DNA of 64,000 bases from Blepharisma japonicum (taxonomy: Eukaryota; Ciliophora; Heterotrichea; Heterotrichida; Blepharismidae): assembly GCA_949751835.1 (NCBI GenBank), contig CATKHK010000026.1, positions 372,001 to 436,000 of the forward strand, in the 5' to 3' direction. The position numbers were made by a program, and so were the translations under genes. Shown here piece by piece: positions 37,294 to 62,608 of this stretch (the stretch's first letter is position 1; each line of letters begins with the position of its first letter). The notes beneath the pieces were generated by a model. It was not told the DNA's origin. It saw only the letters and a list, made by a program, of their open reading frames with translations, and searched no databases.

Positions 37294-39150
37294 ATGAAAA
37301 AGTCTGTTTTCTCAGGACTCAAAAATTTTTTCGATGGCCTTATAAATAAAGAAAGCCAAGCAAGCAGCCCAAGTGTCGACGAAGATGATACAAAACACTC
37401 AACAACCGTTACTAACCCAGATTCCATCTATTATGTCACTCGAGAATCAGTTTGCGATTCTTTTTTTGGTTCAGTTAGCGAAGGCTCAGATTCGATGCTT
37501 GCACAAAAAGTTCCAGCCTCAACGAGTACACCAGCCACCCATATACCGTTTTCCCATACACAAAACTCAAACCGTGCTTTATGGGAAGCAGCTTTGCAGA
37601 ATGATTATGAAATGTGCAAAGATCTACTAGATCATGAAATTTATGGTGATTTGGCCGCAGATTCAAATTCCAAAGATCAACAAGGTATAACGGCTTTGCA
37701 TATTTCTGCTCATGAAGGCTTTATAAACGTATGTGAGGTGCTTTTAGACTATGGCACTAATACAGATCTTAACGTCATGAATGTAATAAAAAGAACACCC
37801 TTGCACCTTGCTTGCATCAGTGGACACACAGAAGTTGCACAATTACTTGTCCGGTCTGGAGCTGATATAAATTTAGTTGATATCGATGGAAACACCGCTT
37901 TACACTTGGCAACTGAAAAAAATCACCGGCAGTTGGTATTATGGCTTTTAACCCGCGGACCAAATATTTTTATAAAAAACAATACTGGTCGTACACCTCC
38001 AGATCTTGCAACATCTATTGAAATTTTGGATATTTTCAAGGATTATTGCAGGAGACTAAACCTGCCTTTACCAATATTAGGAATGATGCCAATTTCTTCT
38101 TATGAAAGATTAAGATCAGAGCCTCGCAGGGTAACTATCAGCGATTTAACTGCAATTGAAGAAAATAAAGAAGGTGGCCGAGTAACACCAAATGATTTTG
38201 AAGTTATTCAAGAGCTAGGAAAAGGCAGCTTCGGAGAAGTATATTTAGTAAGGAAACAAGATAATAAAAATTACTATGCAATGAAAGTGCTCAGAAAAGA
38301 CAAAATTATGGGACAAAATCTAATAAAATATGCTATGACTGAGAGAAATGTACTGAGCTATGTCAGACATCCATTTATAGTGTCCTTAAATTATGCATTC
38401 CAAACCCCTGAAAAATTATTTTTAATACTTGACTATTGCTCCAGAGGAGATTTAGGTTCTTATCTAAGCAAAGAAAGACGATTATCAGAGCCATTAGCAA
38501 AAATATATGTATGCGAAGTATTGCTAGCTTTAGAAGAACTACATAAGCGGGATATTATTTTTAGAGACTTAAAGCCTGATAATATTGTATTAGATGAAGA
38601 AGGCCATGCTATGCTTACAGATTTTGGACTTTCTAAAGAAGGGATTTATGACAATGTCACTGCTAGAAGCTTCTGCGGATCTGTAGCTTACCTCGCCCCT
38701 GAAATGATAAAGAGGCAAGGGCATGGGAAAGCGGTTGATTGGTATTTATTAGGAGTTTTACTATATGAAATGCTTGTAGGGACTCCGCCTTATTTTTCGC
38801 CAAATCGTGAAGAATTGTTTAGGAATATACAAAGAGGTTTATTGAAAATTCCGTCACATTTATCACAAGAAACTAAAGATTTATTAAAAGATGTAAAAAT
38901 TATTTAGCTTTTGCAAAGAGACCCTGCTAAAAGACTGGGGACAAGAAAAGATGCAGAAGAAGTAAAAGAGCATCCATATTTTAATGGTGTTAATTGGGAT
39001 TCTGTGCTAAGAAGAGAATTAAGACCTTCGCTACCGAAGAAAACTCCAATTGATGATGTTGTAATTCCTAATGAAAAAGTGTATGGAGATATGAGCCAGT
39101 TTGGAGATAGATCCAATCAAGTAACTGGCTGGACTTTTATTTCTAATTAA
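37294..39150 (+). CDS. ankyrin-repeat AGC-type protein kinase
   Basis: 613 residues after splicing the intron at 38893-38907. Residues ~95-265 hold about four ankyrin repeats ('GITALHISAHEGFINVCEVLL', 'RTPLHLACISGHTEVAQLL', 'NTALHLATEKNHRQLVLWLL'). Residues ~301-565 are an AGC-type kinase: 'LGKGSFGEVYLV', 'YAMKVLRK', 'FRDLKPDN', 'TDFGLSKEG', 'FCGSVAYLAPEM'. The C-tail ends 'VTGWTFISN', a hydrophobic-motif-like end. All catalytic residues are present. Ankyrin plus AGC kinase is common in ciliates and other protists; the partner of the repeats is unknown. The start is ATG at 37294, since no ATG lies further up in frame. Confidence 0.92.
38893..38907 (+). other. 15-nt intron
   Basis: GTAAAAATTATTTAG. 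Removing it skips the TAG and joins 'TKDLLKD' to 'LLQRDPAKRLG', the conserved last helix of AGC kinases, in frame. Confidence 0.92.
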
Positions 39151-57668: not shown

Positions 57669-58244
57669 ATGAAAGACAAATACTACGCCGTTTCAAGGGG
57701 CATCGAACCTGGGGTTTATTCTTCATGGGAAGAGTGCAAAAAGCAAACACATGGGATTTCTGGTGCAAAATTCAAAAGTTTTTACTCTTTAAAAGCAGCC
57801 CAAAAATATTTAAACAAAAGAGAAGCTTTTAATCAACATAATTTTAGTAGGAACACAAAGAATCAGAGCCAAGAAATTTATCATTTATATTTTTATGTAA
57901 AACCCAATGATGATGAAAATTTTACTTTAAAATTTGTATTAAAGCATCAAAGCGGGATCTGCCTTTTTAAGTTTGATAGAAACTTTAAATGCAGTGAGAA
58001 AAAAATAATAGAGCTGCAAACATTGTTACTTGCTTTAAAAAAGGCTACTGATTTAGATATTAATAGAATTGAAATCTTTAGTAGCTCTTGTGAACTGGTG
58101 AGCAGGCTGAAAAATGTGCAGAAAAAATATTTAGAGAAAAATATAGAAAATTTATTTGTTACAGTTAAAGATAAACTCGCATATTTTTCTAGCTGAGGAG
58201 TGTCATATGTAGAAGAGAATATTATTGATGAGGAATTATTATAA
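57669..58244 (+). CDS. RNase H1-like protein with hybrid-binding domain, catalytic site lost
   Basis: 191 residues. Residues ~1-50 are a clear RNase H1 hybrid-binding domain: 'YYAVSRGIEPGVYSSWEECKKQ', with 'FKSFYSLKAAQKYL'. The rest looks like a shrunken RNase H fold: 'IELQTLLLALKKATDLDINRIEIFSSS' aligns with 'AELxAIxxAL...ixIxTDS', but the first Asp, the Asp of TDS and the last Asp are missing; only the Glu stays. One TGA is read as Trp, and the frame ends at 58244. It probably binds RNA-DNA hybrids or dsRNA without cutting. It stops 11 nt before the convergent zinc-finger gene stop. Confidence 0.7.
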
Positions 58245-58255
58245 ATAATTATTTA

Positions 58256-59050
58256 TTATTTAAGTTTTTGGATTTCACTGTTGCAGAACGCACAATGATC
58301 TTCACATAATTTTTGGCAGGCTACACAGACAACGCAGTTATTGCTGCATTTAAAAGATCGTGAATATATTTCTTTATCTCTCTTCAAGCATGACAAGCAT
58401 CGAAATCCAGCCCTTTTTTTAAATAACTTCAAAGTTTTTCTCGGTAAGCTTTCACCACATATTTTACAAACCTTAGTCTTATATGAAGCCCTGCAACATT
58501 TTTTGCATAACAATTTATATTCTTCTTTGCATTTAAGCTTTAAAAATTCGGAAACATTTTTTGAAATATTGCAGCATGGGCATACAAAATCAGGCACAGA
58601 TTCCAAATTAATACACTCATGACAAATGCACCTTATTGAGTAGGGTTTAGAATTTGATCTTTTTACGATCTTGAATATTATGCAATTTCAACATATTTTA
58701 TGCTTTAGTGAGCATGACGGAATAGATGTTGGGTTTGAAATTAATTTATTGCATTTGCAGCAGAAATTACTTTCGCCCCTAATAATAGGTTCGGTATTTT
58801 GTTCTAAATATCAGTTTTTCCAATCTCTTATATATTTAATCTCGTTATCTCCAATATCAAGTCCTCTATCTTTATAAAAATCATAAGCATCTGATATATA
58901 TTTAATATTATTTCCAAAAATATCAGATTTTGATAAATCAACCCCAGACTTAGAAACTTGTCCTAGAAGATGACAAATTAAAGAATTCTGGCACTGGATA
59001 AGCTGCTTTATCTCAGGTGAGGTGCATATATCTGTATCTCTTTCTACCAT
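58256..59050 (-). CDS. Cys-rich zinc-finger protein, 264 residues
   Basis: ATG at 59048-59050, TAA at 58256. Two TGA codons are Trp ('RDWKNWYLEQ', 'KHKICWNCI'). The first ~85 residues are helical. From ~95 to ~260 there are many CxxC pairs (CCKC, CWNC, CICHEC, CPCC, CKKCC, CKIC, CLSC, CVVCVAC, CAFC), giving at least five zinc sites. It could include a RING or zinc-ribbon, but the order does not fit a named family. Its start is 18 nt from the divergent WD40-TRP start. Confidence 0.7.
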
Positions 59051-59068
59051 TATTGAAATTCTATATAA

Positions 59069-62000
59069 ATGTCATATAATGAAGGCGAATATTCTATGCT
59101 AATTGACAAAGAAGTCACCTCAATGGACTATTTCTTGTCTGCTATAAAAAGTATAGAAAATCAGCCAAAAATGCACATCATAAATTGCAATCAGGCTCCA
59201 AAATGCTTAGGGCTTTATCAAGACTCTTTAATATTTGTGGGATTAAATGATGGAAATGTGCTGAAAATCAACATAAAGGAAAATTATGCAGAAGCAAGCT
59301 TCAAATGCCATGACTCAGTGGTTAAGTCAATGGTTATTGATCAAGTAAAGAATGAAATATTTACAAGTAAAGGAGACGAAATTATTAAAAGGTGAAATTT
59401 TGATGGGAATTTACAAGATGAATATAAAACTCAGTCAAAAAATATAGCAGCTCTGTGCTTAGCACAAAAATTTATTGTTTCAGGAGATAAGGAAGGAAAA
59501 ATATGCTGAGTAGAGAAAAAGACAAAAGAAGTAAAAAATTCTCAATATGCGCATATTGGGAAAATTAAAACTTTAGCATCCAATGCAAAATATACAGCTT
59601 CAGCTGGCAGTGATGCCTTAATTAAAATTTTTTCATCAGAATCTCTTGACCAGCTTTTTGTTTTGAGCGGTCACTCTCGAGAAATCTACAAGCTTGAGTT
59701 TTCCAATTTTGAAGAATTTCTCATTTCAGCAGGTGGCGATAACACTATTAGTGTCTGAGATTTAAACACAAAAATGATTTCTGCAGTTTTTTCAGGCCAC
59801 GAAAATTGGGTTAAAACATTTTGTCTTTGCCCCTCAGAAGAATATATAATTTCTGGGACTTTTGACCATAACGTTAGATTTTGGAACTTAAAAACCAAAG
59901 AAAGTGAGCCTGAAGGAAGTTTCTCAGCCCATGAGAAAACCATTATAGGGATTTGCTCATACAATGAAGGCAATACAATTATTACTGCAAGTAAGGATAA
60001 GACTATTAAAATTTGGTATTTGCTGGATTCTGAAGAAAATATAAAGGTACTTGAAGGGCATAATGATATTGTCACTGATTTAGTACTGGATGATAAAATT
60101 ATGTATTCTTCTAGCATGGACGGTAGTATTTGTGTGTGGGATTTAGGAAAGATTGAGAATAATCCTATTGCAAAGATGCTGGGGCATGAGAAAGGAATAA
60201 GAGATATAGAGCTTTCACCTCTGAAAGGATTTTTATACTCAGCAAGTGAAGATGGAAGTATAAAAGTATGGGATACTACAAGCAGATTATGCAATGATAC
60301 TTTAACAACTCATGAGCATATATTCTTATGTGTAGCCTGCAATAATAATCTTATCCTTGCTGGTGGAGCCTCGGGTAACATCTCAGTCTGAGATGTAGCC
60401 ACAAGAGCACTCATAAAAACGCTAAAAGGCCATTGAAATGGGGTTTCTCACATAAAATTAACAAGAGAAACAAATAAACTTTATTCTTCTAGCTATGACA
60501 GGACTATCAGAATATGAGATTTAGCAGAATTTCGACAATTAAAAAAAATTAATGCCCATGACGGAGCAGTCACCAAAATTGAGCTATCAAAAATAGAAAA
60601 CTTTTTAGCTTCTTCAAGCATTGATAAATTAATAAATTTGTGGGAAACTGACAGCCTTATTGAAACCAGTCTGAGAGGGCACAATTGAGATATAAATTCG
60701 CTATGTATTTCTAATAATGAAAAATATTTATATTCTGGAAGCAAAGATGGGACACTTATTGTGTGGTTTATTGCAGAAAGAGTTGAGTTGGTAAGGCTGC
60801 AAATGAATGGAAGTATCAACGCGATCATTGATATTCCATTTGAAAAATCCATCGCTCATACATTAGATAATAAAATTATTTTAAGAAAAACTTTGGAAAG
60901 TACTACAGATTTACGCTCATACCCCAAAAAACATTCATTTTTATTTTATTCATATATCAAAAATCTGCTGAAAGGGAAGCATGTTCCATATACAAATCAG
61001 TGAAATAATTATATTATTTTCCCTATGAGAGTGAATTTGTTGCATATTTATGCTTATTTAAATGACCACAAAAAAATAAAAAAAGCGATGACTAACCTTT
61101 GTAGGTTTCTTATTACTTCAAAAGGGGAAAATCCATTATCTATTGCTCTTGATAGAAAAGCTTCAAGATCTGCTGATGAAATTATTAAAAAAATTGCAAA
61201 TATTTCCTCAATTTTGAGACCATATGTGTTTCATGCGGTGGAAAATCAAATTACAAAGCTCCCGAAATACAAACTTTCTAATATTCATTTACTGTATGAA
61301 GCAGTATTTCCACGTTGGAAAAAGAAAAATTTACCTAAATTTGGGATCATTTCTAATGATTCTATAGTGAAAAGTGAGAATATGGATATAAAAATAGACC
61401 AGCTATGCGAACCAAACGCTAAAGATGGCGAAAGTATTATTTTTAAACAAAGTTTATGCAGGATATCTTTATCTCTAGGCTCAAAAGAAAGCAGGAAATT
61501 TTTGAAAAGGCTTTTATATTGTGATGATACTGAAGTATTCCAAATCCAATTTATCCAAGTAATTTTGCAATATAAGTTCCAACAGGTCAGAAAGTTGCTT
61601 TTTATTCAGCTTGGACTCAGCTTATTGAATTTAGTTTTGCTTATTTTTTATGCAATATCTTATAGATATAGCTACTGATTTATCATTCCTTTATTGCTGA
61701 TTAATACAATTTACTTTTTATTCGGAGTTCTCCAATGGATCCAAAATACGAAATCCTATTTCAGAGACTTTTGAAATTGGCTGGAATCAATAAGAATTTT
61801 TATGGTTTACGCTTGTCTTTGCTTATCACTTATCAGCTCAGAAAATATGCAAGTCCCATTGACTGTTTGCATTTTTATTTCAATGTTTCGAGTTTTCGTA
61901 TTTTTTAGAGTTTTTGATAAAACAAGGTATATGATAAGAATGATAGTAGAGGTCATCAAAGATATCGTCCCATTTCTGCTGATTTTACTTATGGCTACTT

Positions 62001-62608
62001 TTACCATTTCTTTAGGGTTTTACTTGGCAGGCGATTTTCAAATGAAACTTTCGACTAATATTCTTAATGCTTATCTGCTAAATTTTGGACAATTAAATGT
62101 TGAAGATGAAAATGTGATGATTTGGTGTGTCATTTCTTTTGCATTTTTCTTAAATCCACTTGTGCTGATGAATCTTCTTATTGCGATTATGGGAGATACT
62201 TTCGATAGGGTTCAGTATTCTATGACTATTGCGAATTATAAAGAAATTATTAGTTTGGTGCTAGAAATGGAAGCAGGGCTGCTATGGAGAAGAGAGAATA
62301 ATAAAAAATTTTATATTCAGCAATGCTTAGAAAGAGATGGGAGGACAACAAGTGATACACTTTTATGGGAAGGAAAAATTAAAAACATCCAGAGAGAAAT
62401 TAAAAGTATTAATGAAAACGTCAGAGAAAACCAAAAGACTTTGGGAGAAATTTTGAGAACTACAAGTAACATGGATAAGAAAATAAGCCTAATGCAAGCT
62501 CAAAAAACGAATTTCGCTGAAAAGCCAAAAGAATGCTCTCAATTTGAATTCAAAGATATGACGAAGACATTACTAAAAGGAATTTTGAAGCCAAAAATTA
62601 ATAATTAA
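59069..62608 (+). CDS. WD40-TRP-type cation channel fusion
   Basis: 1179 residues in one frame, ten TGA codons read as Trp, several at WD positions. Residues ~35-605 are about twelve to thirteen WD repeats ('ISVWDLNTK', 'IRIWDLAEF', 'INLWETDS'). Residues ~650-690 look ankyrin-like ('NLLHIYAYLNDHKKI', 'NPLSIALDRK'). Residues ~841-1045 are an ion-transport domain with six hydrophobic segments, ending in the TRP-like S6 'LVLMNLLIAIMGDTFDRV' preceded by the pore region 'LLNFGQLN'. A coiled coil follows (~1090-1130). A calcium- or cation-permeable channel with a beta-propeller sensor is inferred. The start ATG is only 18 nt from the divergent gene. Confidence 0.85.

What the first reader, a model, noticed from the sequence alone, without database searches (positions are those of the whole stretch)
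59069..62608. WD40 beta-propellers fused to a TRP-type channel
One uninterrupted frame joins twelve or so WD repeats (~570 residues), an ankyrin-like linker and a six-TM channel core with a TRP-like S6. TRP channels usually carry ankyrin repeats or no N-terminal domain; a large WD40 sensor is unusual and could be a cytosolic docking or sensing platform. This heterotrich group is known for strong responses to light and touch, so a channel with a new sensor is of interest.
Basis: partly seen in the sequence, partly recalled or inferred. Interest (0 to 1): 0.72.

Follow-up and report, generated by a model that had tools for sequence, protein, structure and literature searches.

The report
WD40-ankyrin-TRP fused channel family
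A single gene of a Blepharisma-like ciliate joins WD40 propellers to a TRP-type ion channel, and it belongs to a large family of such genes in the same genome, a possible sensory channel repertoire of this single cell.

Summary
Window 59069-62608 (+) is one open frame of 1179 residues when TGA is read as tryptophan. It encodes about 14 WD40 blades, a short ankyrin-like stretch, a six-helix Ion_trans core with a TRP-type S6, and a probable coiled-coil tail. It is not a one-off: the same 45-Mb genome holds about 75 places with a related channel part. All 50 of these that could be checked carry WD repeats. Of 33 loci read, window included, 29 are single frames over both halves. Both halves are under purifying selection and diversified together, so the fusion is older than the expansion. 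By family profile the channel is of the TRP superfamily, TRPV-like chains first, but its domain make-up fits no TRP subfamily. Most likely it is a tetrameric cation channel whose propellers dock cytosolic or cytoskeletal partners and pass their state to the gate; the docking and gating steps are inferred. Literature searches showed no such fusion, but eukaryotic protein databases could not be searched. New variant of a known kind; interest 0.62.

The parts
59069..62608 (+). whole gene, 1179-residue WD40-ankyrin-TRP channel protein (TGA = Trp, stop TAA)
   Evidence: 28 further paralogs with the same layout in one frame
59186..60913 (+). about 14 WD40 blades (residues ~40-615), probably two seven-bladed propellers
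   Evidence: Pfam WD40 and beta-propeller families; 13 blade hits at ~41-residue spacing; the 14th blade and the split into two rings are inferred
61028..61195 (+). short ankyrin-like stretch, under two repeats (residues ~654-709)
   Evidence: profile A2 of 28 members, positions 35-90, hits ankyrin chains in PDB; Pfam Ank_2 weak in 5 of 28 members, none in the window protein
61532..61591 (+). pre-S1 region; K-W in 26 of 28 members, K-F in the window protein and one other
   Evidence: aligned to Inactive and, at 8.5 bits, TRPV6
61595..62206 (+). six-helix channel core S1-S6 (residues ~843-1046)
   Evidence: Ion_trans; hydropathy; TRP hits
62084..62101 (+). presumed selectivity filter F-G-Q-L-N-V (residues 1006-1011)
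   Evidence: alignment of 28 members; role by analogy
62207..62332 (+). post-S6 (TRP-helix-like) region with conserved E-x-E and W-x-R
   Evidence: aligned to TRPV2 at E 0.17 only, to TRPV3 and Inactive by profile
62360..62518 (+). probable coiled-coil C-terminal tail
   Evidence: long helix in a low-confidence model, weak COG6_N match 0.03-0.04 below its cut-off; much longer tail in paralog L039

Best explanation
The gene encodes one subunit of a tetrameric TRP-superfamily cation channel. The subunit carries WD40 propellers, probably two, followed by a short ankyrin-like stretch, on the cytosolic side. The propellers most likely act as a docking platform: each paralog binds its own cytosolic or cortical partner, and binding of, or pull on, that partner is passed through the ankyrin-like and pre-S1 region and the post-S6 helix to the S6 gate, letting cations (perhaps Ca2+) in. 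About 75 loci of this kind would give the cell a set of channels with the same pore machinery and different partners or locations. Shown here: the single frame, the domain order, TRP homology, ankyrin homology of the linker, purifying selection on both halves, their joint diversification, and family size. Inferred: tetramer, topology, ion selectivity, partner docking, gating route.
For: One frame of 1179 residues. 39 of 39 loci scored with the whole protein, window included, match in both the WD and channel parts (39 of 438 first-look candidates were scored). The channel part alone gives 77 matches, about 75 places (75 of 88 candidates scored). Of 33 loci read, 29 are single frames over both halves and 33 of 33 hold WD repeats by a profile made from the family itself; Pfam, an outside control, finds propeller families in the 7 of 7 weak loci that I gave it. 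TRP superfamily by profile: Inactive (TRPV) 2.2e-14, TRPV6 1.1e-11, TRPM8 5e-11, TRPA1 7.6e-11, PKD2L1 1.5e-10. Linker to ankyrins. Distances of the two halves correlate, r = 0.68, 0 of 2000 permutations as high; the nearest relative is the same in both halves for 20 of 28. pN/pS is 0.29-0.57 in both halves of 11 of 11 close pairs. A hint from outside: in Chlamydomonas, a TRP channel (ADF1/TRP15) and a separate WD40, EML-like flagellar protein (ADF3/FAP16) act in the same Ca2+-triggered deflagellation (passages of PMC5068960).
Against: No transcript, protein, structure or current. The WD half is less conserved than the channel half (mean identity 19% against 30%), which also fits a loosely constrained scaffold; the nearest relative differs between halves for 8 of 28. 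Blade positions that I recall as top-face contact hot spots (profile positions 4, 6, 22) are not clearly more variable than other exposed positions (37%, 47%, 46% identity), so no special diversification of a binding face is seen. pS is near saturation, so pN/pS is only a rough guide. Five of 28 members lack the filter glycine (L019, L023, L035, L036, L037) and L036 and L037 also have odd S6 sequences, so some may not conduct. The window protein alone does not reach significance with any TRP chain (best 0.17). The only structure model has pLDDT 31.
Confidence: 0.6

Rival explanations
1. Force-gated tether: the propellers anchor the channel to microtubules or the cortex and pull opens it, as the long ankyrin spring does in NOMPC, with the ankyrin-like stretch as the remaining link.
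For: Same order (large cytosolic repeat domain, pre-S1 linker, TRP core). Matches over the Pfam cut-off include microtubule-associated EML and WDR90/POC16 propellers. In Chlamydomonas a TRP channel and an EML-like WD40 protein share a deflagellation pathway.
Against: The WD40 matches are unspecific: WDR3, WDHD1 and TEP1 propellers score higher. No tether partner is known; a propeller is not a spring.
Confidence: 0.22
2. Address label only: the propellers carry the channel to a cilium, cortex or vacuole and take no part in gating; gating comes from lipid, Ca2+, voltage or temperature in the TRP core.
For: WD40 domains commonly act as scaffolds (established knowledge). The WD half diverges more than the channel half.
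Against: None specific; joint diversification is expected under either reading and does not separate the two.
Confidence: 0.25
3. Intracellular Ca2+ release channel, for example on vacuoles or alveolar sacs, rather than a surface sensor.
For: Nothing here fixes the membrane in which the channel sits.
Against: Nothing specific; the family size suggests many roles rather than one store.
Confidence: 0.15
4. Artefact: two neighbouring genes read together, or an in-frame 15-base intron or assembly error joins them.
For: Blepharisma has mostly 15-16 base introns and dense genes (passages).
Against: Same in-frame fusion in 28 further paralogs; window and L011 align with no gap of more than 2 residues before residue 1149, so no hidden 15-base intron lies at the junction unless both genes share it.
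Confidence: 0.02

Closest known systems
TRPV channels (Inactive, TRPV2, TRPV3, TRPV6)
   Same: best family-profile hits over the channel core and post-S6 region; ankyrin-like stretch before the linker
   Different: TRPV has six ankyrin repeats (recalled) and no WD40; here under two degenerate repeats plus ~14 WD blades
TRPN/NOMPC
   Same: large cytosolic repeat domain ahead of a TRP core
   Different: 29 ankyrin repeats (recalled) instead of WD40 propellers
TRPM channels
   Same: significant profile match (TRPM8 5e-11); coiled-coil tail and a filter F-G-Q as I recall for some TRPM
   Different: no melastatin homology region seen; WD40 instead
'TRP-like ion channel' 6pw4 (Chlamydomonas TRP1, organism recalled)
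   Same: protist TRP-like channel, profile match 9.3e-10
   Different: no WD40 part that I know of (recalled)
Multi-blade WD40 proteins (WDR3, EML, TEP1, Apaf-1)
   Same: tandem WD40 blades
   Different: not fused to an ion channel (recalled)

Membership tests
TRP superfamily | sequence homology to TRP channel cores | tested here: met
   profile of 21 members: TRPV, TRPM, TRPA and PKD2L1 chains at 2e-14 to 1.5e-10; Ion_trans in 19 of 21 members at E up to 1, best 1.5e-14. The window protein alone: 0.17
TRP superfamily | six transmembrane helices with a pore loop between S5 and S6 | tested here: met
   hydropathy of the window protein, seven peaks of which two overlap; alignment; no structure
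TRP superfamily | conserved S6 and following TRP helix | tested here: met
   S6 N-L-L-I-A-I-M-G-D-T aligned to TRPV6 and Inactive; post-S6 region aligned to TRPV3 and Inactive by profile; W-x-R to TRPV2 only at E 0.17
TRP superfamily | tetrameric cation conduction | not testable with these tools
   needs electrophysiology or structure
TRPV subfamily | six-repeat ankyrin domain at the N-terminus | tested here: not met
   only ~55 residues match ankyrins; WD40 fills the N-terminus
TRPM subfamily | melastatin homology region N-terminus | tested here: not met
   WD blades fill residues 46-566; no such family in residues 1-130 or 578-1179, nor among the 25 of 48 families shown for the whole protein
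TRPP/polycystin | large extracellular domain between S1 and S2 | tested here: not met
   S1 843-861 and S2 870-888, short loop; PKD_channel matched by 4 of 21 members at E up to 1
WD40 repeat proteins | tandem ~40-residue blades with GH and WD marks | tested here: met
Ankyrin repeat | helix-turn-helix repeats of 33 residues | tested here: inconclusive
   family profile significant, window protein alone not, no usable structure

The most novel reading that the evidence does not exclude
The WD40-TRP family is the main sensory channel repertoire of this heterotrich: about 75 loci, one shared gate and paralog-specific propeller rings that bind different internal relay proteins or cytoskeletal sites, so that stimulus identity is set by docking on a built-in double propeller, a way of wiring TRP channels that I have not seen described.
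Probability: 0.28. Interest if true: 0.85.

Novelty: new variant of a known kind. Interest (0 to 1): 0.62.

Why it matters
The channels behind touch and light responses of heterotrich ciliates are, to my knowledge, not identified. A TRP family of about 75 loci with a WD40 module gives a concrete candidate list, testable by knock-down and localisation. It also suggests that the cytosolic coupling module of TRP channels, usually ankyrin or melastatin-type, can be WD40 propellers, which bears on how TRP gating is linked to internal partners.

Tried and rejected
Single-sequence structure prediction gave pLDDT 31.2 and pTM 0.26; its model was not used for a fold search. Hot-spot diversification of blade faces: no clear signal. 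A hidden 15-base intron: the only 5-residue extra piece relative to L011 lies at residue 1149, in the tail, and I see no GT in the DNA there. Viral contigs: 40 pattern matches, none a relative. Two separate genes or an assembly join: rejected on 28 further in-frame paralogs. Membership in TRPV, TRPM or polycystins: rejected on domain make-up.

Literature: ten searches; eight used WD40 or WD repeat as a term (not 31 and 65). In the listings I saw no paper whose title or abstract start names a WD40-TRP fusion. Three listings were capped: 20 of 441 papers, 10 of 45, 8 of 41. I saw passages of five papers: PMC9942806, PMC7935092, PMC10762896, PMC10553269, PMC5068960; in the last, WD40 and TRP belong to two separate genes. 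The Stentor genome paper is not held. This does not prove that none is in print, and I recall, unchecked, that ciliate entries in UniProt may list WD40 plus Ion_trans proteins.

Full report
Check of the observation. Window 59069-62608 on the + strand is one frame of 1179 residues when TGA is read as tryptophan, with ten TGA codons and a TAA stop. Under the standard code the same stretch falls into pieces. The source genome carries 168 matches of a three-fold CCCTAACA repeat (control pattern 0), many of the listed ones at contig ends. The Blepharisma stoltei genome paper reports that telomere repeat, UGA as tryptophan, mostly 15-16 base introns and a 41-Mbp genome (passages); a second paper says that Stentor and Fabrea keep the standard code (passages). 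The genome here has 45.2 Mb in 224 contigs. I take it to be a Blepharisma or near relative; the species is not settled. With the segment's base make-up, an open run of this length by chance has a probability near 10^-33.

Anatomy. Pfam gives WD40 at 5.4e-68 with 9 stretches and many named propeller families, and Ion_trans at 1e-7 in the C-terminal half. A blade profile built from the family finds 13 blades between residues 46 and 566, 11 at i-E below 0.1. A last degenerate blade before residue 615 would make 14, that is, two seven-bladed rings; this last step is my reading. Hydrophobic helices lie at about 843, 870, 905, 931, 966 and 1016, with one further overlapping peak at 855. The presumed filter reads F-G-Q-L in the window protein. 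In the alignment of 28 members the filter glycine is kept in 23; L019, L023, L035, L036 and L037 lack it. The next position is D or E in 14, N in 5, Q in 3, A in 3, S in 2 and a gap in 1. A coiled coil probably follows the post-S6 helix; the only model of it is poor.

A family, not a singleton. Searching the window's genome with the whole protein scored 39 of 438 first-look candidates; these are 39 loci, window included, and in 39 of 39 the matches cover both WD and channel parts. The channel half alone gives 77 matches (75 of 88 candidates scored), about 75 places after joining split ones, one of them a stop-ridden remnant. I read the window, 21 of the other 38 (L011-L030, L039) and 11 places found only with the channel half (L031-L038, L040-L042): 33 loci. 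Of these, 29 are single frames spanning both halves: the window, L011-L030, L031-L037 and L039, with L035 and L039 running off the fetched stretch at their 3' end. Four are interrupted: L038, L040, L041, L042. WD repeats were found in 33 of 33 with the family's own blade profile, weakly in L040, L041 and L042. As an outside control I gave Pfam seven of the weaker loci (L031, L032, L034, L037, L040-L042): propeller families appear in 7 of 7 at 1e-16 or better, in 7 of the 8 sequences sent; the plain WD40 model passes its cut-off in L031, L032 and L037, stays below it in L034, L040 and L041, and is not listed for L042. So 50 of 50 places that could be checked carry WD repeats (39, plus L031-L038, plus L040-L042); some 25 places were not checked.

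One protein, both halves in use. The nearest paralog, L011, aligns over the whole length with gaps of one or two residues only until residue 1149, at 48% identity in the WD part and 53% in the channel part. In 11 of 11 close pairs pN/pS lies between 0.29 and 0.57 in both halves; synonymous sites are near saturation, so I give proportions, not rates. Pairwise distances of the two halves correlate at r = 0.68, and 0 of 2000 permutations reached that (28 members, the interrupted L038 left out). The nearest relative is the same in both halves for 20 of 28 members and differs for 8. The simplest history is one fusion before the expansion, then duplication of whole genes, often side by side: four lie on contig C2 between 834 and 855 kb, with close pairs on C75, C156, C209, C129 and C5.

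What the channel is. A profile of 21 channel halves finds TRP chains: Inactive (TRPV) 2.2e-14, TRPV6 1.1e-11, TRPM8 5e-11, TRPA1 7.6e-11, TRPV3 9.3e-11, PKD2L1 1.5e-10. The pore-only profile of 26 members (L036 and L037 left out because their filter and S6 are aberrant) again ranks Inactive (3e-13) and TRPV3 (2.7e-12) first, with PKD2L1 at 4.9e-10 and a 'TRP-like ion channel', which I recall as algal, at 9.3e-10. The window protein on its own reaches only 0.17 with TRPV2, so the assignment rests on the family profile. Ion_trans is found in 19 of 21 members at E up to 1. The genome also holds PKD_channel matches (35, some inside what look like four-domain channels) and runs of adjoining Ion_trans units, so the WD40 family stands beside ordinary channels. 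The linker profile of 28 members gives 199 PDB matches at E up to 1; most of the 60 shown are named ankyrins or designed ankyrin proteins. Pfam sees Ank_2 in 5 of 28 members, best 0.0012, and none in the window protein.

How it most likely works. TRP channels are tetramers with both ends in the cytosol (established knowledge), which would hang eight WD40 rings under the pore. WD40 rings usually bind other proteins. I therefore propose that each paralog docks its own partner and that the docked state, or pull on it, is relayed through the ankyrin-like stretch, the pre-S1 region and the post-S6 helix to the gate. A lead from elsewhere: in Chlamydomonas, mutants blocked in Ca2+-triggered deflagellation map to a TRP channel (ADF1/TRP15) and to a separate WD40, EML-like flagellar protein (ADF3/FAP16) (passages of PMC5068960); genes that act together in one lineage are at times fused in another, but no binding between those two is claimed there in what I saw. 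A test for extra variation at recalled top-face hot spots was negative, so partner diversification is not shown. A pure address label and a force tether remain open. The window protein's own filter has Q where half of the 28 members have an acid, so its Ca2+ preference is uncertain.

Known or new. No library here holds eukaryotic proteomes, so the spread among ciliates is unknown. Ten paper searches, three of them with capped listings, showed no such fusion; two reviews read in passages treat TRP channels of protists and do not contain the word WD40. I rate it a new variant of a known kind: a TRP channel with WD40 propellers as the N-terminal module, in a very large family.

Noticed in passing
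L040:1362-1920 and L041:1522-2292: Two WD-TRP paralogs are broken at the same place of the linker by about 560 and 770 bases of extra DNA, 87% alike between the two copies over 610 columns and richer in GC (0.37) than the fetched stretches (0.30); relative L042 reads straight through that place, though it is broken elsewhere. Perhaps a retained internal eliminated sequence or another mobile piece.
   Followed up: partly
L039:1-4554 (C1:356800-361800): A paralog whose open frame is at least about 1517 aa, with a very long C-terminal coiled coil of several hundred residues by eye; the whole-genome search gives its frame as 1777 aa.
   Followed up: no
L035:841-4901: A paralog with a Cys-rich, zinc-finger-like C-terminal extension, by eye.
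   Followed up: no
window 58256-59050 (-): Cys-rich 264-aa frame without a Pfam match at 0.01, whose start lies only 18 bases from the start of the channel gene, in divergent orientation.
   Followed up: partly
window 57669-58244 (+): Ribonuclease H1 N-terminal domain (1.5e-19) with an RVT_3 part (8.8e-6).
   Followed up: partly
window 37294-38907 (+): Ankyrin repeats fused to a protein kinase in one frame.
   Followed up: no
C26:437111-441640, about 1.1 kb beyond the window's end; also C16, C71, C95, C51, C159, C6: Runs of adjoining Ion_trans units, as in four-domain voltage-gated channels, one about 2.5 kb downstream of the WD-TRP gene.
   Followed up: no
L036, L037: WD-TRP paralogs on long branches that lack the filter glycine and have odd S6 sequences; they may be non-conducting.
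   Followed up: no
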